From the NCBI GenBank assembly GCA_015233375.1, contig JADFXW010000005.1, positions 541 to 41,027 of the forward strand: a stretch of DNA of 40,487 nucleotides, read 5' to 3'. This document shows positions 4,129-40,288 of this stretch, in pieces. The translations under genes were made by a program, and so were the position numbers. The DNA comes from Candidatus Omnitrophota bacterium. GTDB lineage: Bacteria; Omnitrophota; Gorgyraeia; Zapsychrales; Fredricksoniimonadaceae. The first letter of the stretch is position 1; each line of letters begins with the position of its first letter. The notes below the pieces were generated by a model, which was not told the origin of the DNA, ran no database searches, and saw only the letters and a program-made list of their open reading frames with translations.

Positions 4129-6435
<2,307 letters not shown>

Positions 6436-6439
<4 letters not shown>

Positions 6440-7950
6440 GGTTTAAATGTGCCTTTTACTTCTTCTAATATCTTCTTGAAACCTGCCTTAATTTCATCCG
6501 TCATGGCCAAGGTCTTGTTAAACAAGGCCACAAAATCACCATAACGGGTATCTAATTGGATGAACAGATATTCTTCAAACCTGCGTACCTGGTTTACTGG
6601 AACATCATCCAAATACCCGTTAGTACCTGCAAAAATAATCGCTACCTGATTGGCAACGGATAAAGGCTCATGGATACCTTGCTTGATAATTTCCATCAGG
6701 CGCTTGCCGCGGTCTAACTGTTTGCGGGTTGCGGCATCCAAATCTGAAGCAAATTGAGAGAAGGCTGCTAATTCACGGTACTGCGCTAATTCCAAACGCA
6801 AGGAACCCGCGGTTTGCTTCATGGCCTTGACTTGACCATCACCACCAACGCGTGAAACGGAAAGGCCTGCATTAATAGCCGGCCTCTGGCCTGCATTAAA
6901 CAAATCGCCTTCCAGGAAAATTTGTCCGTCTGTAATGGAAATAACATTGGTGGGAATATAGGCTGACAAATCACCTGCTTGCGTCTCAATAATCGGTAAA
7001 GCAGTCAGACTTCCCGCACCTTTTTTATCCGATAACTTGGCAGCCCTCTCCAATAAACGGCTATGAAGATAAAAGATGTCGCCTGGAAAAGCCTCTCGTC
7101 CCGGCGGCCTGCGTAAAAGAAGGGATAATTGACGATATGCTTGGGCTTGTTTGGTTAAATCATCATAAATAATCAAGGCATGCTTGCCATTATCCCGGTA
7201 ATGCTCTGCCATGGCGGTGCCTGAATAAGGCGCTATAAATTGCATGGGAGCTGGATCAGAGGCGGTGGCTGCAATGATCGTCGTATACTCCATGGCCCCG
7301 AATTTCCGCAAGGTCTCGGAAACCTGGACAACTGTAGATCTTTTTTGACCAATAGCCACATAGAAGCAATAAACACCTTTGCCCTTTTGGTTAATGATAG
7401 TATCAATGGCCAAGGAGGTTTTTCCTGTTTTTCTATCCCCTATAATAAGCTCACGCTGGCCACGACCTACAGGTGTTAAAGCATCAATGACCTTGATACC
7501 TGTTTGCAAAGGCTCATGCACGTTTTTCCTGTCAATGATACCAAGGGCCTTACGCTCAATAGGCAGATAATCTTTGGGAACAAAAGCAGGCTTGCCATCA
7601 ATAGGCACACCTAAAGCATCCACGATACGGCCAAGCAAAACATCACCCACAGGCACAGAGGCAATTTTACCTGTACGTTTAACCTCATCGCCTTCCTTGA
7701 TAGCAGAATCCTCGCCAAAAATAGCAACCCCCACATTCGAACTTTCCAAATTCAAGGCCATGCCCATAACACCGCATGAAAACTCAACTAATTCACCTGC
7801 CATGACATTACTTAAGCCATAAACACGCGCAATACCATCCCCTACATTGAGAACTGTGCCAACCTCGTAGGTTTCAACCTTACTTGAAAAGTTGGCTAAC
7901 TGTTGTTTTAAAATTGAAGATATTTCATCAGGTTGTAATTGTTGAGTCAT
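6436..7950 (-). CDS. atpA: ATP synthase F1 alpha subunit
   Basis: [19 protein letters not shown]-loop; [42 protein letters not shown]. Confidence 0.99.
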
Positions 7951-7965
7951 AACACAAGTCCCTTT

Positions 7966-8502
7966 TTAAACCGGTTGGATGGTCTTTTGTAAATAATTTT
8001 CTAACTGATTTCTAAAACTATAATCGTACATCTTGTCCTTAACCAAAATCTTGAATCCACCAATAAGGCTTTTATCTATTGTCCATTGGGGCAAAACATG
8101 GGCTTTAAATTTATCATTTAAACATTGGCCAATATAAGTTTTTTCGGTATCCTCCGTCACCTGGGCGGTGGTGATCAACGCCTTTAATTGACGGGTGCTT
8201 TGCAAATACAAAGCATCAAAGGACTCAATCATATCAGCCAGCCCTGACAAACGGCCTTTATAGGCGATAAACAACAAAAATTGTAAAAAAAGGTCAGGGA
8301 CTTTTTTCTCAAACAAGGCCTTTAAAAGAGAACTCTTCTGGTCATAAGACAAAAGCGGATTGCCCAGGAATCGGCGGAAGTCTGCTGATTCCTGGATAAA
8401 TTTGCCTATACCTGACATGCTTTGATGCAGTTCTTCCAGGCTCATTTTTTCTTGAGCCAGGTCAAATAATGCTTTTGAATAACGTTCGGATGATTGGGAC
8501 AT
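7966..8502 (-). CDS. atpH: ATP synthase F1 delta subunit
   Basis: MSQSSERYSKALFDLAQE...GGFKILVKDKMYDYSFRNQLENYL; ATG at 8502 preferred over 8550, which lies inside an inverted repeat. Confidence 0.92.
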   Translation of the reverse strand: MSQSSERYSKALFDLAQEKMSLEELHQSMSGIGKFIQESADFRRFLGNPLLSYDQKSSLLKALFEKKVPDLFLQFLLFIAYKGRLSGLADMIESFDALYLQSTRQLKALITTAQVTEDTEKTYIGQCLNDKFKAHVLPQWTIDKSLIGGFKILVKDKMYDYSFRNQLENYLQKTIQPV

Positions 8503-8533
8503 ATCTATTGTATTAAATTCATTTACACACGCA

Positions 8534-8713
8534 GGATTGAGGGATGGCAATTATGTTTTCGGAACAATCAGGGATTTTTGGCCAAATGTTTGCGAGGATT
8601 TACAATAAATTTTTTCCAAATATACTAAGGATGCTTTAGAAAAAATTTATTGTAAACCGAAGCAAACGGCCAAAATATCCCGTTCAGAAAACATAATTGC
8701 CATCCCTCAATCC
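8534..8713. repeat. Long inverted repeat (180 nt) between atpF and atpH
   Basis: GGATTGAGGGATGGCAATTATGTTTTC / GAAAACATAATTGCCATCCCTCAATCC (27 bp perfect ends) plus further interior pairing (TTTACAATAAATTTTTTC / GAAAAAATTTATTGTAAA). Confidence 0.95.
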
Positions 8714-8726
8714 CTGGATGATTTAT

Positions 8727-9251
8727 TTATATACCCTTTATCGCCTCATTGATTAATTTCTTATTTTTCTCATTATCCATGTTTTCTTTAAGGATCTTTT
8801 CAGCGAGTGACACCGCTATTTGCGCGCTTTCTTTTTTTAGGGCATTTTTAACACGCTGGCGTTCACTCTCAATTTCTTGATAGGCGTTCTCGATGATATC
8901 TTCCGCGTTCTTTTTAGCTTGCCCCTCAATCTGATTGGCTAATTCATGGCCAGATTTTCTGGATTGCTCGATGATGATATTTGCTTTTTCCTTGGCTTCA
9001 TTTAAAATTTGGATCTTTGTTTCTTCAACTTTTACTAATTCGGCCTTTATTTTATCCGCGTCATCCAGGGACTTGCGGATATAATCCTCCCTGTTTTTTA
9101 AACCTTGTAAAATAGGCTTCCAGGCAAATTTTTGTAAAATCCACAGGACAAGAAAGAACGTCACCCATGTCAAAATGACCATGAGTGTTTCGGGCATTAA
9201 AATATTAGGACCGCCATTGGATGCGGCATGAGTCACGGACGAATTTTCCAT
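8727..9251 (-). CDS. atpF: ATP synthase F0 b subunit
   Basis: Single N-terminal TM helix then a long charged coiled coil; position in operon. Confidence 0.95.
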   Translation of the reverse strand: MENSSVTHAASNGGPNILMPETLMVILTWVTFFLVLWILQKFAWKPILQGLKNREDYIRKSLDDADKIKAELVKVEETKIQILNEAKEKANIIIEQSRKSGHELANQIEGQAKKNAEDIIENAYQEIESERQRVKNALKKESAQIAVSLAEKILKENMDNEKNKKLINEAIKGI

Positions 9252-9268
9252 AAAATTTTAATCCTTTA

Positions 9269-9505
9269 TTATGATTGAAGCGCTAAAAAGCAAAACACCG
9301 CGCACAACAAAGCCACGCCTTCAACCAAGGCCGCACCCACAAACATGACTGTCTGAATCTTACCTGATTGTTCAGGCTGACGGGCAATGCCGTTTAAAGC
9401 CGCAGAAACAATTAAACCGACACCAATACCAGCTCCTACAGAACAAAGGCCGAAGCCGATCCCTACAAAAAGTCTTCCTAAATGTGCTATTTCCCATGAT
9501 TGCAT
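9269..9505 (-). CDS. atpE: ATP synthase F0 c subunit
   Basis: GAGIGVGLIVSAALNGIARQPE...MFVGAALVEGVALLCAVFCFLAL (two TM helices, RQPE loop). Confidence 0.97.
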   Translation of the reverse strand: MQSWEIAHLGRLFVGIGFGLCSVGAGIGVGLIVSAALNGIARQPEQSGKIQTVMFVGAALVEGVALLCAVFCFLALQS

Positions 9506-9519
9506 AGTTTTTTCCTTTC

Positions 9520-10284
9520 TTAATGTTCTGGATGATACATTTGACCTATAAAAACAGCTGATAACAACACAAAAATGTACGCTTGCAAAAAGACAATCAA
9601 AAGCTCAAGAAGCGATACTCCCACCGCTAAAACCAAGGATGGCAGGGCTATCCAGCCAAATAAGGCGATCATCCCAAGCAAGGACAAAACAAGCATATGA
9701 CCTGCCAGCATATTGGCAAAAAGTCGGATCATCAACGCAAAGGTCTTAATAAAAAGACTTATAAATTCCATCAAAAAGATAAAAGGCAAAATGATTACAG
9801 GAACACCCGCAGGCATAAAAGCCTTTAAAAAACCGCCTAAACCATTTTTTCGTATTGTATCCGCAGTCATGAAATAGAACGTCACCAGTGCTAATGGAGC
9901 CGTTACACTAATATTAGCAGTGGCTGAGGCAAACAAAGGAATCTGGCCCATTAAATTTAGACCAAGGATAAAAAAGAAAAAGGTGCATAATAAGGGTGTT
10001 AACCGCTGGCCCTCTTCTTCTCCTAAGGATGGGATTGCAATACCATCACGAACAAATTGGACCATGGCCTCAAGGCAATTGGTCAAACCCGTAGGAACAC
10101 GTTGCTCTCTTTTATAACAAACGCAAAAAATGACAACCAATAATAAAGCCCATATCACCAGCATCAAGCCATGCAAGGACAAAAAATGAGGCAAAAGAAC
10201 TGGCCCCATAAACGGCAGATGCCATTCATTGGAATTGGTCACATGATGCATGATATAGGAACTTAAATCAAATGATGGATTCAT
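9520..10284 (-). CDS. atpB: ATP synthase F0 a subunit
   Basis: FALMIRLFANMLAGHMLVLSLLG (essential Arg region), C-terminal LLELLIVFLQAYIFVLLSAVFIGQM. Confidence 0.97.
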   Translation of the reverse strand: MNPSFDLSSYIMHHVTNSNEWHLPFMGPVLLPHFLSLHGLMLVIWALLLVVIFCVCYKREQRVPTGLTNCLEAMVQFVRDGIAIPSLGEEEGQRLTPLLCTFFFFILGLNLMGQIPLFASATANISVTAPLALVTFYFMTADTIRKNGLGGFLKAFMPAGVPVIILPFIFLMEFISLFIKTFALMIRLFANMLAGHMLVLSLLGMIALFGWIALPSLVLAVGVSLLELLIVFLQAYIFVLLSAVFIGQMYHPEH

Positions 10285-24452: not shown

Positions 24453-24526
24453 TGGAGCGGGAGAACGGAATCGAACCGTCGTTCTTAGCTTGGAAGGCTA
24501 GAGTTCTGCCACTGAACTACTCCCGC
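24453..24526 (-). tRNA. tRNA-Gly(TCC), CCA encoded
   Basis: GCGGGAGTAGTTCAGTGGCAGAACTCTAGCCTTCCAAGCTAAGAACGACGGTTCGATTCCGTTCTCCCGCTCCA. Confidence 0.93.
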
Positions 24527-24592
24527 GTCCCACCCCTACATCCCTCCCTCATGATGAGGGAGGTTTGAAGCAGGGGCGGAAATTCTTTTATA

Positions 24593-24673
24593 TGGGCAGG
24601 GAAGGATTCGAACCTCCGAAGCGTGTGCAGCAGATTTACAGTCTGCCCCCGTTGACCACTTGGGTACCTGCCC
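24593..24673 (-). tRNA. tRNA-Tyr(GTA), CCA not encoded
   Basis: GGGCAGGTACCCAAGTGG...CAGACTGTAAATCTG...GGTTCGAATCCTTCCCTGCCCA; long variable arm. Confidence 0.93.
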
Positions 24674-24686
24674 TAAAAATATTATA

Positions 24687-24762
24687 TGGAGCTGGCTAGA
24701 GGCTTCGAACCCCCGACCTGCTGATTACAAATCAGCTGCTCTACCAACTGAGCTAAGCCAGC
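24687..24762 (-). tRNA. tRNA-Thr(TGT), CCA encoded
   Basis: GCTGGCTTAGCTCAGTTGGTAGAGCAGCTGATTTGTAATCAGCAGGTCGGGGGTTCGAAGCCTCTAGCCAGCTCCA. Confidence 0.95.
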
Positions 24763-29412: not shown

Positions 29413-32400
29413 TTAGATTACTGATAAAAACCTTCGGATGTTTTGAATACGATATATTGTATCAATAACTGGAGTAAAACCTGGATAATTTTGGTAGCGT
29501 TGGATCATGGCAGCATCAAAACCTGATTGGGCTTGGGCAGCCATTCTATTGAGGTCTATCATTCTTGGGCTCAAATCTATACCACCAGGACTGGCCATGG
29601 CAGAGCTCTTTAACTTGACGCCTAACTTTCGGCTAGGTAATCTTTTATTCCCATCTATCTTTCGACCATTCAGATCAACCCATTGACCTGTCTGAGCGTC
29701 CCGTATTAAATGACATTGCTCCTCCCATTTGCGCCTATCAACATTCCACTGTAACTGATATTTTTCTACAGAAACAAATTTACCTTTCTTAGAATCCCAT
29801 CGAAAGGCACAAGTTTTCACAATAGTGGAATCATATCTCGGATATCCATAAAAAATAACCAATGGACCCCCTTCTTGAGACCTGACAAATGCTTCTGCCC
29901 TCTGTAAACCACCACCCACTTCCATATACCCATCCTTTTGTTTCCATATTTTTGTATTATCCACATCGTTTGGTAATGGCACAATGCCTCTCATATATCC
30001 TCTGTTTAAATTACTTTTTGTCAGCCATGAGTCAAATTTAATCCAACGCCCTTTTGGGTCCTTATACCCTTCTCTGAATTCTTGAGCTATCTTTTCGCAA
30101 AGCTTCTGGTCATCTGTTATCTGATATATCAATTGTTCTTTCTGTTTATCCCAGAACCATACAGATCTCATCACTTCCTTACCTTTTCTGTATTTAACAA
30201 AAGTTATCTCCATTTGACCATTATTATTAACAATACCTATTTGGCCCTCCTGCAAGTGATCACCCGCCTTCACATACATCCTTGGCATCATTTGACCATT
30301 GGGTAAGGGGAGCCCAAGAACATCTCCTTTTTCTAAATAACTCAACGGCACGAATTTGTCTAATCTGAACCATACTTGAGTTGAGCTTTGATACGCCTCC
30401 AGCATGTCCTTTTGTATCCTTGACTTCTCTTCATCTTTTGGCTGATATACTAATTGCTTTTTAGTATTGTCCCAGAACCAGACAGATCTCATCACTTCCT
30501 TACCATCCCTGTAATTAACGAAAGTCATTTCGATTTGACCATTATTATTAACAATACCCATCACACCTTCCTGTAAATTGTCACCAGCCTTCACATATGT
30601 CCTTGGCATCATTTGACCATTTGGTAATGGTATCCCAAGAACATCTCCTTTTTTTAAATAACTCAACGGCACGCGCTCATCCAACTTAAACCATTGTTGA
30701 GTAAAACCTTTGTAAGCTCTTAAAATAGCTCTTTCAATTTGGACTTGTTTTTTATCTTTTTGATATTTAAATCGTCCTGCTCTTTTAAGCCAAAGCCATT
30801 TTGATTGAGCATGCACCTTTGATCCTTTAAATCCGATGATGGTCATTTCTATCCGTCCATTCCCATTATTATCAATAACCACTTCAACATCTTCCAAGTC
30901 ACAACCTACTTGCATAGAATTAGTGGTCTTTGTTCTATACCACAAGTTGCCATTGGGAAGCGGTGTAGCCGGTTTTATAAAGCCTTGTTTTAAGGATGAC
31001 TCTCCTATCCACTGGCCTATTCTGAATCTACAACTCCCTTTCTTAAGGTAAGCATTCCTAAATTTTGTTTCAATCTCTTGGTATTGGAATTGCCCCTGGC
31101 CTTTATTCCATAACCACTGCGATAATGACGCCCTTTCTTGACCAATCAATCCATAAACCGTCATCGTGATACGCCCATTTCCAGCATTATCAATAACCAC
31201 TTCCATATCATCTAAACCTTCTCCAACCTTCATGTCCCGACTTGTTTCTTCTTTCGTCCATAATGAGCCATCAGGCAAAGGCATATCTGGCATACATCCT
31301 TTTAATAAAGAAACAGGGGAAACCCTGTCTTTGACTCTAAAAGTCCTCAACCCCACTTCTCTATAAGCTGTTTTAAATTCATCCTCAAGTGACATGGGCG
31401 TTTCTTTTTCTATAACTGTTATCTTATCAGCCTGCTGCTTATGAACAAATCTCTCAATGTTATTATCCCACCGATAAGCGCAACTATGAAATCCACCATC
31501 AAGAAAACCTAAAAAAACAATTATGGGAACACCGCCTAAATCCGTAACAATAGCTCTTGAGGGTATAAAAACATTTCCCACATCACTATAGAGTTCTTTG
31601 ATTTGCAGGGAGGTTTTATTAGGTAATGGGATTAAAATTTCTAAATCAGCTTCTACTAAATCAATAGATACTCCAGCCGCGGTTTGATATCCATTTTCAA
31701 ATAACTCGCTGATCGTTTTTATTCGCTGTTCCTTAACAGCCTCCTTTTTATCTTGGCTTGAAACAACGTCACTTTGCCCATCTTTTTCTTCAGTCGATAA
31801 GACTTCTGGCCTCGCTTGTTCCTCTTGTTCTTCAAGACCACCGCTGCGTATCTCAGGAACCTCATTTTTAATATTTTCTGATGTACCCGCCTCTTTCTGA
31901 TTTGGTGGATTCACAGGCGCATCTTGTTGTGGACTTCTTTTCTGACGTTGTTTTTCTGAATTTTTATGTTTTACACATTTAATTTGAAAATTTCCATAAT
32001 AGGTAACCTCACCGCCTCCTTTAAACTTCACGCGATAGCCTTGCCCCAAATCAGGATAATCAGGATTTTGTTCAATCACTTCAATAATCTTCCCATAACG
32101 TTGTCCAATTAAAACCTCATCTCCAGCTTCCAATTCATCATCATCACTAAATTTAACAAACCCTGGGACTGCCGTTTCTATGCTTCTCTGTGAAGATTTA
32201 AGCCTTCTCGCCTTTTTACCCTTTTTAGTCCTACCTCTCTCTAAAGTCTTGTCTGCCAAAACAACTTCTTTCTGTCTTTCAGGTATTTTGACCTGACTCT
32301 GTGCTTTCTTATCAGGCATTGGAACATGAGGGACTTGAATGTCTATATCTGGAATGGGCCTGCTATCTATCCCTTCAATAGAGAGAAGATCAAATTTTCC

Positions 32401-34308
32401 TTTTATGGGGTTCCATAACCATTGACTTTGTCCTGTTTGATGTCCATTCTTAACCCCAACAATAGTTCTTTCTATATGATGGGGATTTCTTAAAACCTCT
32501 AATAATGCCTTGAACACCTGCTTATCTTTAACAATTTCTTCAATCTTATCTTCATCAATTAATCCGGGATCAACAAAAACCTGTCCTCCAACCCTGACCA
32601 TATAACCTTGAGATATTAATTGCTCAAAAACCATAATTCCTGCAGAACGACCCTGCAAAGATCTCAAGGCATCAAAAATATCACTTGTTTCAACAACACC
32701 AGACCCTCCTATCGTATGTTCAATAATCACGTGGGCGTTCGTTAACCCTTGGCCTACCTCCATATATTCTTGACTCAAAAGTTTCCTCCCATTAGGTAAC
32801 AAACAACCAGGTTTTAAATACCCTGCCATTAAAAGATCTTTTTCAAGCCATTCGGTTAATTCTATTTTAGCAGTTCCAGGAACTGTATAGGCCAGCCTCA
32901 ACGCATTTCTTATACTTATATCTACGTTTCTTTTTATCTTATTTCTTTCTTCTTGATGTAATACTTCTTCTTGGGGTATTTCATTAGTCTCTGAAGAATC
33001 TATAGGGACTTTTATAATACCACTTCTTCTCGAACGATAAGTCATCACCACTCCATTTCTCTCAACCTCATATACCGCTAAACCAGCGAGTGGCCCTTCC
33101 TTCTCAGAAGGCAGCTCTGACTTAATCTTCCATGGCGTCCCCTGGATTAAAATCAAATCCCCAGGATTTATCGTTTGATATTGGGGACCTTGACTCTCTT
33201 GTGCTGGTGAAACCAATCTTACCTTCATGCCAAAACTTTCTTTTTCAGGCACGGCCATGGCTCCATCTTCCCTATCCAGTGTTATTTTCTCAAAACCTGA
33301 AATCCCGCCTGAAAAATATTTTCTGGGAATACGAAGACCGTTGGTTTTGTTGATATCCTCCTTGATGTAATTAAAAACACCCTTCTGATAGGCCTTAATA
33401 TAACGCTCATAAATTTGTTCCTTTATTGTCTTATCTTCAATATCAACGCCTTTTATCTTGCCCTTACCCACATAAACCTTGGCCAATAAAGTCTTTGTAA
33501 TAACATCCCTGTACCATTTTGCTAAAATGGCGGCATAATAAATTTGACGTAAATGAGAAAAATTCTTGCCCTCGTTAACCTCATGTTCGATGGCCGGTAA
33601 GATGATTTGACGAATAAGTTGGGAAGTAGAATGGTGAATATTGTTTTTGTGATGAGAAAACGCCAAATAATCCTCTTCAAGCATCACCTTCAATCGAGCT
33701 TCAGTCACATAAACAGCATGGCCTTTTTCATAAATTTTTGCTTGAGCAGGCACGATCCAAACCTTGTTAAAACAATTAAGCGGGATATCATGGGTACCAA
33801 AACGCTTTGAGGCTTCTTCATAAATCTTGTCCCAAAATTCCTTACCCAAAGCTTTTTCTGGATAAATAAGAGAGGCTGTCAATTGCTTAAGCAGATAATC
33901 CTGGGCTAACATGTCTCGTCCCAGATCCGTATTACCTAATTCATTGGGGATGACCCTGTTATGCTCATAGGGCGATAAATTGACCCATAAATCTGATGCT
34001 TTGACAGTCAGAGCAGCTAAGAAGTACCTCACCATGCGCCGGCCTTCTTCTTTTATTGTGCTTTGATACACTCGAGTGCTGCCTGAATCTAATATGAAAT
34101 CAAAATCAAATGGTTTGTCAGGGAAGGTTATCATCCCCTTTAACAGCACAGGGACAAAATCAGAAGATAGATAAACCTGACTGCCTACAGATGGCAAGGC
34201 GTTTAGAAATAGATTTTGAGCAAAGGCCTGTCTTGGACTAAGAAGCAAGGAACCGCTTAATAGGACACACAGAATCTTTCGAGCTAAAGATTTTATATGA
34301 TATTTCAT
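29413..34308 (-). CDS. Large exported protein (1631 aa): paralogous N-terminal module, KOW/SH3-like segments, tandem ~107 aa repeats, GGIDL tail
   Basis: Signal peptide MKYHIKSLARKILCVLLSGSLLLSPRQAFA|Q; N-module shared with the next two genes; repeated 'PLPNG...VGxxL...GIVNNNGQIEMTF...SVWFWD' units. Confidence 0.85.
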   Translation of the reverse strand: MKYHIKSLARKILCVLLSGSLLLSPRQAFAQNLFLNALPSVGSQVYLSSDFVPVLLKGMITFPDKPFDFDFILDSGSTRVYQSTIKEEGRRMVRYFLAALTVKASDLWVNLSPYEHNRVIPNELGNTDLGRDMLAQDYLLKQLTASLIYPEKALGKEFWDKIYEEASKRFGTHDIPLNCFNKVWIVPAQAKIYEKGHAVYVTEARLKVMLEEDYLAFSHHKNNIHHSTSQLIRQIILPAIEHEVNEGKNFSHLRQIYYAAILAKWYRDVITKTLLAKVYVGKGKIKGVDIEDKTIKEQIYERYIKAYQKGVFNYIKEDINKTNGLRIPRKYFSGGISGFEKITLDREDGAMAVPEKESFGMKVRLVSPAQESQGPQYQTINPGDLILIQGTPWKIKSELPSEKEGPLAGLAVYEVERNGVVMTYRSRRSGIIKVPIDSSETNEIPQEEVLHQEERNKIKRNVDISIRNALRLAYTVPGTAKIELTEWLEKDLLMAGYLKPGCLLPNGRKLLSQEYMEVGQGLTNAHVIIEHTIGGSGVVETSDIFDALRSLQGRSAGIMVFEQLISQGYMVRVGGQVFVDPGLIDEDKIEEIVKDKQVFKALLEVLRNPHHIERTIVGVKNGHQTGQSQWLWNPIKGKFDLLSIEGIDSRPIPDIDIQVPHVPMPDKKAQSQVKIPERQKEVVLADKTLERGRTKKGKKARRLKSSQRSIETAVPGFVKFSDDDELEAGDEVLIGQRYGKIIEVIEQNPDYPDLGQGYRVKFKGGGEVTYYGNFQIKCVKHKNSEKQRQKRSPQQDAPVNPPNQKEAGTSENIKNEVPEIRSGGLEEQEEQARPEVLSTEEKDGQSDVVSSQDKKEAVKEQRIKTISELFENGYQTAAGVSIDLVEADLEILIPLPNKTSLQIKELYSDVGNVFIPSRAIVTDLGGVPIIVFLGFLDGGFHSCAYRWDNNIERFVHKQQADKITVIEKETPMSLEDEFKTAYREVGLRTFRVKDRVSPVSLLKGCMPDMPLPDGSLWTKEETSRDMKVGEGLDDMEVVIDNAGNGRITMTVYGLIGQERASLSQWLWNKGQGQFQYQEIETKFRNAYLKKGSCRFRIGQWIGESSLKQGFIKPATPLPNGNLWYRTKTTNSMQVGCDLEDVEVVIDNNGNGRIEMTIIGFKGSKVHAQSKWLWLKRAGRFKYQKDKKQVQIERAILRAYKGFTQQWFKLDERVPLSYLKKGDVLGIPLPNGQMMPRTYVKAGDNLQEGVMGIVNNNGQIEMTFVNYRDGKEVMRSVWFWDNTKKQLVYQPKDEEKSRIQKDMLEAYQSSTQVWFRLDKFVPLSYLEKGDVLGLPLPNGQMMPRMYVKAGDHLQEGQIGIVNNNGQMEITFVKYRKGKEVMRSVWFWDKQKEQLIYQITDDQKLCEKIAQEFREGYKDPKGRWIKFDSWLTKSNLNRGYMRGIVPLPNDVDNTKIWKQKDGYMEVGGGLQRAEAFVRSQEGGPLVIFYGYPRYDSTIVKTCAFRWDSKKGKFVSVEKYQLQWNVDRRKWEEQCHLIRDAQTGQWVDLNGRKIDGNKRLPSRKLGVKLKSSAMASPGGIDLSPRMIDLNRMAAQAQSGFDAAMIQRYQNYPGFTPVIDTIYRIQNIRRFLSVI
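30089..30730 (-). repeat. Two recent tandem copies of a 321 bp (107 aa) coding repeat
   Basis: ccagaacc(a/g)(t/g)acagatctcatcacttcc at 30151 and 30472, 321 bp apart; long near-identical stretches between the units. Confidence 0.85.
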
Positions 34309-34374
34309 CGTATTTATTATTTTAAATCAGAATAAAGATGAGGAATTATACAACATATTAATATTTTGTATATA

Positions 34375-36969
34375 TTAATTTGTCTTATAATCAAACACAG
34401 AAACACCAAAAGTGGATGATATATCAAGAAGGCCAATATGGAGGATAATAGGCACGATTTTTTTCACGCCTTGACGCTTCATCTTCATCAATAAAGCTTT
34501 ATTAACGGAAACATGAATTTGATTATGCTGGTCTCTCTGGACTGAAAGGACCGCATCTTCTGACTTTAAGTCAATACCACCTTCTGGATTAGGCTGCCTG
34601 TCTGCTGCTTCGCTTCGCAGATAAGATGAGCCTAAAAGAAACCCATATACCTCATCCATATGATACCTATCGCCTTGATCTAAATAAAAATCTAAAGAAT
34701 GGGAAGACTTTATCAGGTCTATCACATTTATCAAAAGAGCCTTTTGCCTTTCATACTCTCTTATCTGATGATGTGCTGTTTGATACCTGATACGCTCTTC
34801 TAAACCTGTCCCAAAATTCTTATAAAGATTATAAAGAACATCCGCAAAGGATACCGACACAAAATCGCCTGACTTAAAATGAGTTAGATAATCACCCGTT
34901 TTATATTGACTATAATAATAACTGTAAACGTAAGCCATCCAATAATGCCGTACAATTGGGTCAATCGGCCTTCTTACCCACTGCTCAAACGTGTTAAAAT
35001 ATTTCCTAAAGGCAATAACAGCATTCACTCTTTCTTCAATATAATCCCTTTGATAGTAGAATGACCCTTCTCGCAGGTGTCTTGCTAAACCCCAATGTCC
35101 AGGAACATATCTATGGCGTTGATATTTCCCTAGATACCTTTCAAAAACCTTCTCATTTGATCCAAAATCATCTGGAAGAAGGTCTAAATATTCCATAATA
35201 ATATAGGCCGCTTCATCGATATATACAGGCTGTTTACTGGTTTCTTGAATAAGTTGTATCAAAGGGACAACTTCATCAACCATGGGCACTCGGCGCTGAC
35301 CTTTGCCTAAAGAATCCCTGGAAACACCTGCCTTGGTTTTTTGATTGAAATTAAAATGTTCCATGAGAGCTGTTAAAACCCTTGAGTTTCTTATCTTATT
35401 TTCTTGATTGTCTGGATCTGCGGCAATAGCAATCCCTTCAAGATCTGATATCAAACCTGATAAAGACGTCTGGTCAAAAGCTGAAATCCGCTGCAACGCA
35501 TTTTGAGCAGCCCTGATTTTCTCTAATGACTCAAAAATCCCAGAAGGGTCTAACGCCAGATAGGCAGATTGGTATTTGGATAATATAGGCTGCAATATAC
35601 TGCCCCTCTTTCTTGTTAACCGAGAAATTTTGAGGGCAATTTCGTATTCCTTTTGTTGAAAATCTCTTCTAAGACGCCTGATTTCCTCTACAATAGCTGC
35701 CTTTTTTTGGTGAATTTGTTCGCTCCATTGAATGATTTCCGGCTCAAGAGGGGTTAAGACAAGCCTTTCATAAGGCCTCTCTTTTTCTTTGACCATTTGA
35801 GGCGATGCCTGAATCTCTTCTGCGACCATACCAGGATTGGCAAAAACCTTAACAGCTAAACAACCGTCTAATTGAGGGATAACGGATGCTAACTGCGCAT
35901 TGCTTCTTAATAAAAATTCTTTCATTCCCCCATCATACCCGCCAGAAAAATATTGATGCGCTACCGGCACTTGAGTCTTTGGGTCAAACTCATCTTTGAT
36001 AAAATTAAAAACACCTTTTTGGTAGGCTTTTAAATATTGGTTATAAATAGCTTCATTGGTGGCCTTATCATTCTGATCAATCCCTTTCACCGTACTTTTA
36101 TTGGCATAGACCTGATTAAGTAAGGCTTGCTTTAAATGACGCTTAAACCAGACCGCTAATACCTGTGCATAAAAAATCTGGCGTAAGGTGGAAAAATTCT
36201 TGCCTTCATTGACTTCTTTTTCGATTTCAGGAAGAATAATTTGACGGATAATATTTGAACTCCCCCTAGCCCCCTCTTTCAAAAAAAGAGGGGGGATATT
36301 ATTGGTTTTAATGTCTTCTTGTTTAGCCAATGCAAGATAATCCTCTTCTAACATCACCTTCAAATGCCCACTGACGATAAACCCTGTTTGACCATGTTCA
36401 TACACACTTGCCTTTTGAGGGACTATCCATACTTTATTAAAGGTATTTACTGGTATTTGTGTTGACCCATATAATTCTTGAGCTTGTTTATAAATTTTGG
36501 CCCAAAATGTTTTTCCTAAAGAATTTTCAGGATACATCAAGGATGCAGTCAACTGCTTGAGCAAATAATCTTGGGCTAACAAGTCCCTGCCCATGACTGT
36601 TTGGCCCAGCGCTGTTGGTATAATCCTGTCTTTTTCATAGGGGCTTAAATTGACCCAAATATCCTTATCAGGCAGGGTTAAGGAAGCAAAAAAGTATCTG
36701 ACCATCCGTAACGCTTCCCTTTTCAATTCTTCCTTTGATGTCTTTGATTCACCAGGTGAAACAATAAAATCAAATAAAAAGGGATTGTTTTCATTAATGA
36801 TCACCCCTTTCATTAATGCAGGTTGAAACAAAGGACTTGCAGAAACCATGGTCCCTGCAACAGGTAAATCAGCAATAGACATAGCCATGCTCATAGAGCC
36901 CCCCGGCCCTGGCATAACCATGATTGATAAAATAACAAAATAAGTGAATATTCTTTTGAGTTTATTCAT
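34375..36969 (-). CDS. Exported paralog 2 (864 aa): N-module plus helical cargo of unknown function plus GGIDL tail
   Basis: MNKLKRIFTYFVILSIMVMPGPGGSMSMAMSIADLPVAGTMV signal region; DIWVNLSPYEKDRIIPTALGQTVMGRDLLAQDYLLKQLTASLMYPE. Confidence 0.82.
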   Translation of the reverse strand: MNKLKRIFTYFVILSIMVMPGPGGSMSMAMSIADLPVAGTMVSASPLFQPALMKGVIINENNPFLFDFIVSPGESKTSKEELKREALRMVRYFFASLTLPDKDIWVNLSPYEKDRIIPTALGQTVMGRDLLAQDYLLKQLTASLMYPENSLGKTFWAKIYKQAQELYGSTQIPVNTFNKVWIVPQKASVYEHGQTGFIVSGHLKVMLEEDYLALAKQEDIKTNNIPPLFLKEGARGSSNIIRQIILPEIEKEVNEGKNFSTLRQIFYAQVLAVWFKRHLKQALLNQVYANKSTVKGIDQNDKATNEAIYNQYLKAYQKGVFNFIKDEFDPKTQVPVAHQYFSGGYDGGMKEFLLRSNAQLASVIPQLDGCLAVKVFANPGMVAEEIQASPQMVKEKERPYERLVLTPLEPEIIQWSEQIHQKKAAIVEEIRRLRRDFQQKEYEIALKISRLTRKRGSILQPILSKYQSAYLALDPSGIFESLEKIRAAQNALQRISAFDQTSLSGLISDLEGIAIAADPDNQENKIRNSRVLTALMEHFNFNQKTKAGVSRDSLGKGQRRVPMVDEVVPLIQLIQETSKQPVYIDEAAYIIMEYLDLLPDDFGSNEKVFERYLGKYQRHRYVPGHWGLARHLREGSFYYQRDYIEERVNAVIAFRKYFNTFEQWVRRPIDPIVRHYWMAYVYSYYYSQYKTGDYLTHFKSGDFVSVSFADVLYNLYKNFGTGLEERIRYQTAHHQIREYERQKALLINVIDLIKSSHSLDFYLDQGDRYHMDEVYGFLLGSSYLRSEAADRQPNPEGGIDLKSEDAVLSVQRDQHNQIHVSVNKALLMKMKRQGVKKIVPIILHIGLLDISSTFGVSVFDYKTN
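36257..36295. repeat. Interspersed palindromic element (copy 5), inside the CDS of paralog 2
   Basis: gaactccccctagccccctctttcaaaaaaagagggggg; translated in frame as NIPPLFLKEGARGSSN. Confidence 0.9.
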
Positions 36970-36978
36970 AATTGAGCT

Positions 36979-37977
36979 TTAACTTGTTTGCAGTCCTAAA
37001 ATTGGCAGAATGCTTAAAAGAGGTATAATACGAATAATATTCGCTACTACACCTGAAAATTTTCCACGTTGAAATTCAGCAATCATCGCAGGGTTAAATT
37101 TTATTTTAACACCTTGACCAACCCTCTCAATATCCAGCCCCGCCTTCTTAACCTTAAGGTCAATACCGCCAGGCACAAAATTCTCTTCTAAATGCCGAGC
37201 CTTTCCTATGTCACTTATATTCATGGCAAAATCTTGGGACCATTCAAGCTCAATTTTCAACTGATTCTTATCGAAACCTGCTAACCGAATAACATCATCT
37301 TCATCCATCATCAGAAGCCTCTTTACCACGTTCATTTCTTTTTCACCCGTATCTTCGCCTGTTTCTTGACTTAAAAGGACTTCTTTAGCCTTATTAAAGA
37401 CGGGTTTAATACGTTTGGAAACATCGACAATCTCATCCACCTTGGGGAATAAAACAGATCCAGATTTATCCCGATAACCATTTAACCGTGCCACATATTG
37501 CTGTTGAATAGACAAATCCCCTGGATTCATGACTTTTTCCATAAGCCGTTCGGTTGCATTGATAACAAAATCATCAAAATCTTCTATCCTCAATTGTTGA
37601 ATCTTCAAAAGACCGTCATCACCAAAAACAAAGTTTACAAATTCCTCCATCCCTTCAAAAGATTCAACCAGGCGTTTATCCTTATACATTAACTTATAAG
37701 CCAAAACAAAATCTTCGACATACCCCAACATTTTATCCGCATTAAAGAATAATCTTGCTTCTGGTGATTGAATTTCATCAAATGTCTTTAAAAGAAGATG
37801 ATTAATATCCCTGGAAATATCATGATCAATAGCCAAGTTATTCTGATTGTATACAATTTCCTGGGCTGCTGCCTGATTATACCGTGTCACCACACGTGAT
37901 CCAACCTGCATCTGGGCTGCGATTACGGGATTGGCTGAAAAATATTCACCTATCCCGGCCTTCCACAAAATGAACAA
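36979..37977 (-). CDS. 3' part of exported paralog 3 (frame-shifted continuation; HD-like C-terminal part and GGIDL tail)
   Basis: Begins in +1 frame within the end of the upstream ORF; no credible start; contains ...EARLFFNADKMLGYVED... and ENFVPGGIDLKVKKAGLDI tail. Confidence 0.65.
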   Translation of the reverse strand: MFILWKAGIGEYFSANPVIAAQMQVGSRVVTRYNQAAAQEIVYNQNNLAIDHDISRDINHLLLKTFDEIQSPEARLFFNADKMLGYVEDFVLAYKLMYKDKRLVESFEGMEEFVNFVFGDDGLLKIQQLRIEDFDDFVINATERLMEKVMNPGDLSIQQQYVARLNGYRDKSGSVLFPKVDEIVDVSKRIKPVFNKAKEVLLSQETGEDTGEKEMNVVKRLLMMDEDDVIRLAGFDKNQLKIELEWSQDFAMNISDIGKARHLEENFVPGGIDLKVKKAGLDIERVGQGVKIKFNPAMIAEFQRGKFSGVVANIIRIIPLLSILPILGLQTS

Positions 37978-40288
37978 ACGGGAGCCTGCCTAACTCATGA
38001 GCTAAAGCTACCGTGACGAGTTTATCTTGATCCATTTGTAATTTCATTTTCTGTGTATATAGTTGGGCAGAAGCCAAGCCACGCAGGACATGCCTTTGTC
38101 TATTCGTCAATGTTTTTGTCGAATCCTCTTTAACATGTACAAATGTTGGAAAACAGCCGCCGATATTCTTAAGCCTTACCCACCCCGAGGATGAACGAAT
38201 TTTCTCTGCTAATCCGGCGCTTGTCATAGAGGCACTGACCTCTTGTTTCTGACTAAGAAGCTCAGTTCTTCCTAAATGCAACAGTTTAGAAGTTATATTG
38301 TTTCTTATTTTAGCCAGTTGCGGTGATCCTTGAAGTCTCTCAAGAGCATCGTGGTCTAATATATTCCCAAAGCTTATATTGTTCCCGTACACCGATGCCT
38401 CCAGTACACCTTTCGAATCAAGATATAAATACGATTGATCATAGGAGGGAGTATCGTATGCTATTGTAAAATCGTTATCAAATTGTCTTCGTATAGCCTG
38501 ACACGCTTCAAAGTATGTTTCATAATCAATAAAATATGGATCCTTTTCTTCCGCATATAATTTAGCTGTTTTTCCTATTCTTTTATACCTGCTTATTTTC
38601 CAACGAAAATTCTGGAGACCTTGTCTTTGTTGCTCCATTAATTGACCGATTTTAGGAAGGTCTGCCAAATTTTTTGCCGAAGCCACGGTCAAAATTTGGG
38701 TCTTTAGATGAGGAAAATGTTGCTTAATCAATCCGATTGTACGCAAACCTGCTTCAAAAGTTCCCTGACGTCCACTGACTTGATCATTTTCAATATTATA
38801 ACCATTGATTGAAACAGAAAGAAAATCAATATTGGGTATAAGATCTAAAAATTTCCTCTCATTTAATAAAACGCTGTTTGTATAAAATAAAATCCGTAAT
38901 CCCTTTTCTTTGGCATATTTTACAAGATCTACTATATGAGAAACCATCAAGGGTTCTCCTCCAGTAATCGTTAAGGAGACAACCCCATTAGCCTGCATCA
39001 TATCAACCATTCTTTTATGTTCTTCAAGAGTCCCTTCCTGATCTGCCGCAAAATTGTCCTTCCAACATATAGAACAATCACGATTACATCTTTTTGTAAC
39101 CAAAAATTCCATTACCGGCGGCAATATCATTGCCGCATTAGACTTGCTTACAAACGTTTCAACGACAGCCATGGCCCCATTCACTGTTATTTGGTCTCCT
39201 GGAGTTGGCTTCTGTTCTGCTTCCAGGATACCAGAAGTCTTCATGGCTAATCCACCTGAGAAATATTTGCGTGAAATGAACTGTTTACTACCCTCATCCA
39301 TCTCTTCCTTAATATAATTAAAAACCCCCTTTTTGTACGCTTTTAAATACTCTTCATAAATTTTTTCCTTGACCCCAATATCATCAGATAAAACGCCACC
39401 GATTTTGGCTTTATTGCTATAAACCTGATTAAGCAAAGCATCTTTCAAAGCCAGCTTATACCATGAAGCCAAAATCATTGAATAAAACATCTGCCGCAAG
39501 GGTGCAAAATTCCGTCCTTGATTGACCTCTTTTTCAAGTTCAGGAATGATGATTTCGCGGATGATGTGACTGCCTATTTGATTGGTAGAGACGCCATAAA
39601 TAGCATCTCTGCGATGATAAAAATTGCCTTGATATTTTTTAAGAGAAAGATAATCCTCATCAAGCATCACCTTTAATTTTGCGCCAACCACATACACGGC
39701 GTTGTTATGTTCCAAAACCTTGGCCTTTTCTGCCACAATCCATACCTTGTTAAAAGTACTCACCAAAATTTCAGATGTGCCATATTTTGCCTGGGCCTTT
39801 GCATAAACCCTATTCCAAAACTCTTGGCCTAAATGTTTCTCAGGATAAATGAGGGACGCGGTTAATTGCTTTAAGATGTAGTCTTGGGCTAACATATCAC
39901 GCCCCAATCCTGTTTTTCCTAACTCGGTTGGAATCATCCTGTTTTTTTCATAAGGAGATAAATTAACCCATAAATCATCTTCTTTGATGGTCAATGAGGC
40001 CAAGAAATATTTAATAAGTTTTTCGGATTCAACCTTAAATTCATGCCTGTTCACTTTTAGACCGGAATTGCCCGTGTCTAGAATGAAATCAAATAGAAAT
40101 GGATTTTCAGAATGAACTTTCAAGCCTTTAATCAAAACTGGCTCGAAGGCAGGGCTTAAATTTACCATGGTCCCTGCAACAGGTAAATCAGCAATAGACA
40201 TAGCCATGCTCATAGAGCACACCGGCCCTGGCATAGCCATGATTGATAAAATAACAAAATAAATGAATATTTTTTTGAGTTTATTCAT
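37946..40288 (-). CDS. 5' part of exported paralog 3: N-module plus radical SAM domain plus start of an HD-like domain
   Basis: MNKLKKIFIYFVILSIMAMPGPVCSMSMAMSIADLPVAGTMV; FLVTKRCNRDCSICW (CxxxCxxC), TITGGEPL; RQRHVLRGLASAQ...VALAHELGRLPFVHFVE. Start moved to ATG at 40288. Confidence 0.8.
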   Translation of the reverse strand: MNKLKKIFIYFVILSIMAMPGPVCSMSMAMSIADLPVAGTMVNLSPAFEPVLIKGLKVHSENPFLFDFILDTGNSGLKVNRHEFKVESEKLIKYFLASLTIKEDDLWVNLSPYEKNRMIPTELGKTGLGRDMLAQDYILKQLTASLIYPEKHLGQEFWNRVYAKAQAKYGTSEILVSTFNKVWIVAEKAKVLEHNNAVYVVGAKLKVMLDEDYLSLKKYQGNFYHRRDAIYGVSTNQIGSHIIREIIIPELEKEVNQGRNFAPLRQMFYSMILASWYKLALKDALLNQVYSNKAKIGGVLSDDIGVKEKIYEEYLKAYKKGVFNYIKEEMDEGSKQFISRKYFSGGLAMKTSGILEAEQKPTPGDQITVNGAMAVVETFVSKSNAAMILPPVMEFLVTKRCNRDCSICWKDNFAADQEGTLEEHKRMVDMMQANGVVSLTITGGEPLMVSHIVDLVKYAKEKGLRILFYTNSVLLNERKFLDLIPNIDFLSVSINGYNIENDQVSGRQGTFEAGLRTIGLIKQHFPHLKTQILTVASAKNLADLPKIGQLMEQQRQGLQNFRWKISRYKRIGKTAKLYAEEKDPYFIDYETYFEACQAIRRQFDNDFTIAYDTPSYDQSYLYLDSKGVLEASVYGNNISFGNILDHDALERLQGSPQLAKIRNNITSKLLHLGRTELLSQKQEVSASMTSAGLAEKIRSSSGWVRLKNIGGCFPTFVHVKEDSTKTLTNRQRHVLRGLASAQLYTQKMKLQMDQDKLVTVALAHELGRLPFVHFVEGRDR

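What the first reader, a model, noticed from the sequence alone, without database searches (positions are those of the whole stretch)
29413..40288. Tandem cluster of three polymorphic exported proteins: shared N-module, swapped cargo, shared GGIDL tail
Three consecutive minus-strand genes share a signal-peptide-bearing ~340-380 aa N-terminal module. Its hallmarks are FDFI, RxxRYFxAxLT, DLWVNLSPYExxRxIPxxLGxTxxGRDxLAQDYxLKQLTASLxYPE, NxFNKVWIV, LKVMLxEDYL, EVNxGxNFxxLRQxxY and KYFSGG. After KYFSGG they diverge completely: tandem 107 aa repeats, an unknown helical domain, and radical SAM + HD. All end with a similar short tail containing 'GGIDL' about 60-80 aa from the C-terminus, with a similar pattern in paralogs 2 and 3 (GGIDLKxxxxxLxIxR...NxAxI...VxxIIxxIxxL). 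Conserved ends with swappable middles suggest a modular export/display or effector-delivery system, comparable in logic to polymorphic toxins but with no recognised delivery domain. From memory, Omnitrophota genomes carry many proteins of this type; I know of no functional description.
Basis: partly seen in the sequence, partly recalled or inferred. Interest (0 to 1): 0.88.

Follow-up and report, generated by a model that had tools for sequence, protein, structure and literature searches.

The report
Exported protein chassis with swappable cargo
One order of tiny, probably host-dependent bacteria (Omnitrophota) carries dozens of genes per genome that wrap completely different enzymes between the same exported front module and the same short tail, with a repeated four-residue linker motif (D/N-x-A-M), which looks like an undescribed way of exporting and possibly cutting free a whole set of proteins.

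Summary
The three window genes belong to a family of about 60 members in this 1.76 Mb genome. The family is present in 52 of 55 genomes of its order and rare elsewhere in the phylum. The signal-peptide N-module and the GGIDL tail co-occur: 74 of 79 complete relatives, chosen by N-module alone, carry the tail. Between these ends sit unrelated proteins: radical SAM enzymes, methyltransferases, GGDEF, kinases, GH77, NUDIX, RNAP alpha-CTD, HTH arrays, and even epimerase + URO-D + HPr in one chain. Cargo replacement is shown in both directions. N-module and tail similarity rise together (Mantel r = 0.61) although the cargo is unrelated. New here: linkers flanking the cargo carry [D/N]-x-A-M, 17-fold enriched over neighbouring non-family proteins and replicated in two independent sets; it separates domains inside multi-cargo proteins. 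N-module and tail match nothing in Pfam, NCBIfam or PDB. Correction: in paralog 3 the tail lies in another frame. Best reading: a Sec-exported chassis whose cargo is probably released at DxAM sites and perhaps acts in another cell. Architecture, swapping and motif are shown; export is strongly inferred; cleavage and delivery are inferred.

The parts
33304..34308 (-). Paralog 1 N-module with Sec signal peptide, ending in KYFSGG
   Evidence: HMM and alignment, 50% identical to paralog 3
33256..33267 (-). Paralog 1 linker motif DGAM, 13 residues after YFSGG
29608..33255 (-). Paralog 1 cargo: diverged tandem repeats of about 107 aa; no significant Pfam hit
29596..29607 (-). Paralog 1 linker motif SSAM just before the tail
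29413..29586 (-). Paralog 1 GGIDL tail
35938..36969 (-). Paralog 2 N-module with signal peptide
   Evidence: AlphaFold part
34582..35937 (-). Paralog 2 cargo, predicted mostly helical at low confidence, no Pfam hit; no DxAM motif (NAQ variant at 35893-35901)
34375..34581 (-). Paralog 2 GGIDL tail, predicted strand-strand-helix-strand mini-domain (blocks with pLDDT about 76-87)
39251..40288 (-). Paralog 3 N-module with signal peptide
39128..39181 (-). Paralog 3 linker motifs NGAM (39170-39181) and NAAM (39128-39139)
37946..39127 (-). Paralog 3 cargo: radical SAM domain with intact CxxxCxxC (39065-39088); frame ends at 37946
36979..37977 (-). Continuation of paralog 3 in another frame: DFAM motif (37222-37233) and GGIDL tail (37156-37170 onward)

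Best explanation
This is a lineage-specific exported protein chassis. Each gene encodes, in order: a Sec signal peptide; a conserved N-module of about 310 residues ending in YFSGG; a linker; one or more unrelated cargo domains; and a tail mini-domain of about 60-75 residues starting GGID[LF]. The linkers on both sides of the cargo carry the short motif [D/N]-x-A-M. SHOWN: the architecture, cargo replacement, matched evolution of the two ends, and enrichment of the motif at module borders and between cargo domains. STRONGLY INFERRED: Sec export, from conserved signal peptides and signal-peptidase sites. INFERRED: N-module and tail together act as the handling pair for retention, for a second transport step (the genome has 6-7 secretins) or for assembly; the DxAM motif is most likely the recognition site of a dedicated protease that cuts cargo free, making these exported polyproteins; and, because most recognisable cargos need ATP, SAM, NAD, nucleotides or DNA, they act in the cytoplasm of another cell (prey or host), fitting the proposed predatory or parasitic life of Omnitrophota.
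For: About 60 N-module genes and 55-58 tails in one 1.76 Mb genome; 52/55 genomes of the order against 6/58 across the phylum, where the tail is found in 3, all N-module carriers. Tail in 74/79 relatives chosen by N-module and 17/18 more. Cargo diversity: 154 cargos in 122 groups, no sharing among about 50 own N-module proteins; Pfam types; active-site motifs kept where checked. Swaps in both directions. Mantel r 0.61 own and 0.61 relatives, p <= 0.001. Motif: AM dipeptide 116 observed against 23 expected in own linkers; D at -2 in 62 of 89 linker AM sites of relatives; D.AM 1.53 per 1000 aa in family proteins against 0.088 in neighbouring non-family ORFs, while the control K.AM is equal (0.116 against 0.123); 22 of 34 again D in an independent set. 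Sites fall between Pfam domains, for example L067 site 2015 between URO-D (ends 2010) and HPr (starts 2026). Codons at the motif vary as background with no ribosome-site enrichment, so it is a protein-level motif. Signal peptidase site conserved. Secretins.
Against: No protease, receptor or transporter was identified, and no conserved neighbour gene was found. The motif is missing near one or both ends in a good share of members (44/79 have D.AM in the first 60 linker residues and 21/79 before the tail); window paralog 2 has none. A D/N-P-A-M also occurs inside many tails, which fits docking as well as cutting. One N-x-A-M in L067 (1904) lies inside the URO-D domain. Delivery into another cell rests only on cargo types and on the published lifestyle proposal. 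N-module and tail may evolve together simply because genes duplicate whole before cargo is replaced.
Confidence: 0.5

Rival explanations
1. DxAM is a docking motif, not a cleavage site: a chaperone, a secretion ATPase or the N-module itself binds D-x-A-M peptides in the linkers and the similar DPAM in the tail, and the chain is used whole.
For: Many tails carry the same pattern in a helix start (alignment; the extra D.AM in whole family ORFs over the inter-module counts). Several closely spaced copies occur in one linker. N-module and tail co-vary.
Against: Sites also sit singly between cargo domains far from both ends (L067, L081, L062), which fits spacing of cut units better.
Confidence: 0.25
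2. Surface display or coat: N-module and tail anchor the proteins on the cell surface and cargo works outside the cell or is structural.
For: Signal peptides; some cargos fit the cell surface (GDSL, LysM with weak M23); giant coat-like ORFs are known in the phylum (PMC10066038).
Against: Most recognisable cargos need cytosolic substrates (radical SAM, MTases, GGDEF, kinases, NUDIX, HPr, RNAP alpha-CTD, HTH arrays). No anchor signal or terminal membrane helix is seen in the tails.
Confidence: 0.2
3. The family is mostly genetic debris: repeated gene fusions and recombination between paralogs trap random genes between conserved ends, without a delivery function.
For: Frameshifts and IS insertions in several copies; cargo identity turns over fast.
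Against: Ends are conserved across an order with an intact signal-peptidase site; catalytic motifs kept; motif placed specifically at module borders; matched ends.
Confidence: 0.05
4. Type IX secretion substrates: signal peptide, variable protein, conserved C-terminal sorting domain.
For: Same general layout and a tail of similar length (own knowledge of T9SS; tail).
Against: Tail matches no T9SS sorting family in the Pfam scans or the listed NCBIfam hits. Gingipain-type peptidase C25 (PorU family) absent from 18 of 19 related genomes. T9SS substrates have no 310-residue shared N-module.
Confidence: 0.03

Closest known systems
Polymorphic toxin systems and marker-domain effectors (for example RIX/MIX T6SS effectors, PMC10435454)
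   Same: Conserved module joined to swapped cargo, many copies, cargo exchange by recombination.
   Different: Cargo lies between two conserved ends; cargos are mostly metabolic and regulatory enzymes, not toxins; a Sec signal peptide is present; no recurrent immunity-type neighbour; no known delivery domain.
Type IX secretion system substrates
   Same: Sec signal peptide plus variable protein plus conserved C-terminal domain, often cleaved.
   Different: Different tail family, additional N-module, no C25 sortase in 18 of 19 relatives.
PEP-CTERM / GlyGly-CTERM / LPXTG sorting tags (from own knowledge)
   Same: Short conserved C-terminal tag on many unrelated exported proteins in one genome.
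   Different: Tail lacks the terminal membrane helix and basic end; it is a predicted strand-strand-helix-strand mini-domain.
Giant ORFs of Omnitrophota (PMC10066038)
   Same: Same phylum; long, poorly annotated, probably exported proteins linked to a predatory life. N-module ORFs reach 6160 aa.
   Different: That paper describes no shared N-module, tail or linker motif in the passages read.

Membership tests
Type IX secretion substrates | C-terminal sorting domain of a T9SS family (Pfam/NCBIfam) | tested here: not met
   No such hit in Pfam scans of 52 own cargo+tail parts or among the 25 NCBIfam families listed for 35 full relatives
Type IX secretion substrates | Genome encodes the C25-type sortase PorU | tested here: not met
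   PF01364 absent in 18 of 19 relatives including the own genome, which is 64% complete
Polymorphic toxin systems | Conserved N-terminal trafficking part with variable C-terminal toxin domain | tested here: not met
   Variable part is internal; recognisable cargos are mostly enzymes and regulators rather than toxins
Polymorphic toxin systems | Cognate immunity gene next to each toxin | tested here: inconclusive
   Neighbours are unrelated housekeeping-type genes with no recurrent family; unique small ORFs were not examined
T6SS marker-domain effectors (MIX/RIX/FIX) | No Sec signal peptide; conserved marker domain | tested here: not met
   Conserved signal-peptidase site; no Pfam match to such a domain
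PEP-CTERM / exosortase substrates | C-terminal PEP motif, membrane helix, basic end | tested here: not met
   Tail alignment shows none of these
Sec-exported proteins | Signal peptide with type I signal-peptidase site | tested here: met
   Ala at P1 in 76/79, A/V/S at P3 in 62/79; helix 2-18 in both models
Processed polyprotein | Cleavage at recurrent sites between units | not testable with these tools
   Recurrent DxAM sites between domains shown; cutting itself not shown

The most novel reading that the evidence does not exclude
A bacterial order exports dozens of processed polyproteins. A matched N-module/tail pair carries whole cytosolic enzymes and regulators, which a dedicated protease frees at D/N-x-A-M sites, so that an entire manipulative enzyme set reaches the cytoplasm of prey or host cells through an undescribed route.
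Probability: 0.3. Interest if true: 0.96.

Novelty: categorically new. Interest (0 to 1): 0.88.

Why it matters
Two protein families and a linker motif unknown to Pfam, NCBIfam and PDB account for about 60 genes in a 1.76 Mb genome and mark an entire order. They give a concrete handle on how these uncultured, probably predatory nanobacteria act on other cells. They may also explain part of the unexplained giant ORFs of the phylum. The idea is directly testable by proteomics or by heterologous expression of one short member.

Tried and rejected
Known enzyme or fold for the N-module: no sequence hit, no Foldseek hit with E <= 0.001 against PDB or viral models. Tail weakly resembles RsbS/STAS (E 0.14): not significant. 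Type IX secretion: C25 sortase absent. Caspase-type protease for the D motif: absent in 18 of 19; the one hit lies inside a family member as cargo. Internal start codons or a DNA recombination site as the cause of the AM motif: codons vary as background and no ribosome-site enrichment. Conserved gene neighbour as machinery: none. Stop-codon recoding at residue 105-107 of some N-modules: instead an IS110-family insertion. T9SS-like and toxin readings: see membership tests. Distant N-module homologues in the class lie in other large exported proteins without an informative operon. Paper searches found no description of the N-module, tail or motif.
Full report
CHECK OF THE OBSERVATION. The window's three minus-strand genes carry the described N-module with all quoted hallmarks, and GGIDL stretches at 29572-29586, 34567-34581 and 37156-37170. 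Paralog 1 has the 107-aa tandem repeat (period 321 nt) plus older, diverged copies. Paralog 3's radical SAM frame stops at 37946, and its tail is in an overlapping ORF in another frame (36979-37977). No HD domain was recognised by Pfam there.

SCALE. The N-module of paralog 3 matches about 60 separate genes in the own genome (1.76 Mb, 64% complete), and the tail profile matches 55-58 places. In a sample of the order, 52 of 55 genomes carry the N-module, from 1 to about 40 or more copies, with open frames up to 6160 aa. Across the phylum only 6 of 58 do, all in the same class, and the tail is found in three of those genomes only. In the class outside the order the N-module is rare and divergent in most genomes.

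CO-OCCURRENCE. A tail profile built from own sequences was tested on relatives collected by N-module only. 74 of 79 complete proteins carry the tail, and at least one of the other five shows a GGIDF by eye. 17 of 18 more proteins from two same-genus genomes carry it.

CARGO. The middles are unrelated. Among about 50 own N-module proteins no two share a detectable cargo, and 154 cargos fall into 122 groups. Two tail-bearing fragments outside that set do look similar to each other by eye. Pfam finds methyltransferases, GGDEF, a protein kinase, GDSL, NUDIX, GH77, starch-synthase-type GT5, RNAP alpha-CTD/HHH, HATPase, AAA_5, FHA, TPR, LysM with weak M23, HlyD + OEP, HTH repeats and radical SAM. 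One relative carries an epimerase, a uroporphyrinogen decarboxylase and an HPr domain in one chain. Active-site motifs are intact where checked: radical SAM CxxxCxxC, GGEEF, kinase HRDLKPSN, HPr histidine.

REPLACEMENT, NOT DIVERGENCE. L064 and L065 lie in one genome. Their N-modules are 91% identical up to KYFSGG, their tails 67%, and their cargos unrelated. L089 and L138 share a cargo 59% identical over 649 aa but have N-modules at background similarity (52%). N-module and tail similarities correlate strongly although the cargo between them differs: Mantel r = 0.61 in the own genome and 0.61 in relatives, both beyond 999 permutations.

LINKER MOTIF (NEW). The dipeptide AM is about five-fold enriched in own linkers (116 against 23 expected), concentrated in the first 60 residues after the N-module and the last 20 before GGIDL. 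In relatives the motif is D-x-A-M (D at -2 in 62 of 89 linker sites). In the own species it is N/D/T/S-x-A-M. In two same-genus genomes it is D again, 22 of 34. Rate: 1.53 per 1000 aa in family proteins against 0.088 in neighbouring non-family ORFs; the control K-x-A-M is equal in both. The family figure includes the DPAM inside tails; counted between N-module and tail only, 142 sites occur in 79 relatives, 74 of them in linkers. In multi-domain cargos the sites fall between Pfam domains, with one N-type exception inside URO-D of L067. Codon variation and the lack of ribosome-binding sites show a protein-level motif. In the window: DGAM and SSAM flank the cargo of paralog 1; NGAM, NAAM and DFAM flank that of paralog 3; paralog 2 has none.

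STRUCTURE. The N-module model is fairly confident (pLDDT 79, pTM 0.72) and has no significant match among solved or viral structures. In the full-length model of paralog 2 the tail is a confident strand-strand-helix-strand mini-domain, while the cargo is unreliable. Relative placement of N-module and tail could not be read from the output.

MECHANISM. Export through Sec is strongly inferred from the conserved signal peptide and signal-peptidase site. Six to seven secretins in the genome offer outer-membrane channels, but no link to this family was shown. Matched ends suggest that N-module and tail work together. Motifs at module borders most likely mark cutting sites, which would make these exported polyproteins; docking is the main alternative. 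Since most recognisable cargos need cytosolic substrates, action inside another cell is the most economical reading and agrees with the predatory or parasitic life proposed for Omnitrophota (PMC10066038). None of the last three steps is shown.

PARASITE OF THE FAMILY. Some N-modules are broken at residues 105-107. The cause is an IS110-family element: all six assembled right ends, 100% identical, and two of three left ends lie at the same WV|NLSPYE codons of different paralogs. The window's three copies are free of it. This accounts for part of the assembly fragmentation.

NOVELTY. No Pfam, NCBIfam or PDB family covers N-module or tail, and paper searches found no description. The logic resembles sorting-tag systems and polymorphic effectors, but the defining features of those families that could be tested are not met. 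I therefore rate it categorically new, with the caveat that the function is unproven and the literature held is partial.

Noticed in passing
L030:17860-19483, L011:1-52, L040:4237-4354, L050:7746-7865, L053:4011-4099, L043:7740-7860; left ends L056, L058: An IS110-family element (transposase L030:17947-18963, DEDD_Tnp_IS110 2e-16) sits at the same codons (W-V|N-L-S-P-Y-E) of different N-module paralogs: 6 of 6 assembled right ends and 2 of 3 left ends. It has specialised on the family's most conserved DNA.
   Followed up: yes
L015:2660-4798: A family member whose cargo is a tandem array of about 85-90 aa repeats each with helix-turn-helix matches: a putatively exported DNA-binding-like repeat protein.
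   Followed up: partly
L194:8562-16643, L193:6422-9514, L192:8138-17999, L195:1-7678: Divergent N-module homologues in other families of the class sit in large exported proteins; in L192 and L195 a homologue is adjacent to another very large ORF.
   Followed up: partly
L172, L173, L174: Three contigs filed as viral in IMG/VR carry an N-module gene; provirus, misfiled chromosome or real carriage not decided.
   Followed up: no
L138, L090, L110: N-module genes in MAGs labelled Planctomycetales and Elulimicrobium; probably mislabelled or contaminated bins.
   Followed up: no
G096:C41:86432-86779: A caspase-like (C14) domain as cargo of a family member in a same-genus genome.
   Followed up: no
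window 4129-10284: F-type ATP synthase operon (a, b, alpha, gamma, beta); the beta-type subunit scores with the V/A-type C-terminal domain.
   Followed up: no
window 24456-24762: Three tRNA genes in a row on the minus strand.
   Followed up: no
own genome: Seven secretin matches (PF00263) in a 1.76 Mb, 64% complete genome.
   Followed up: no
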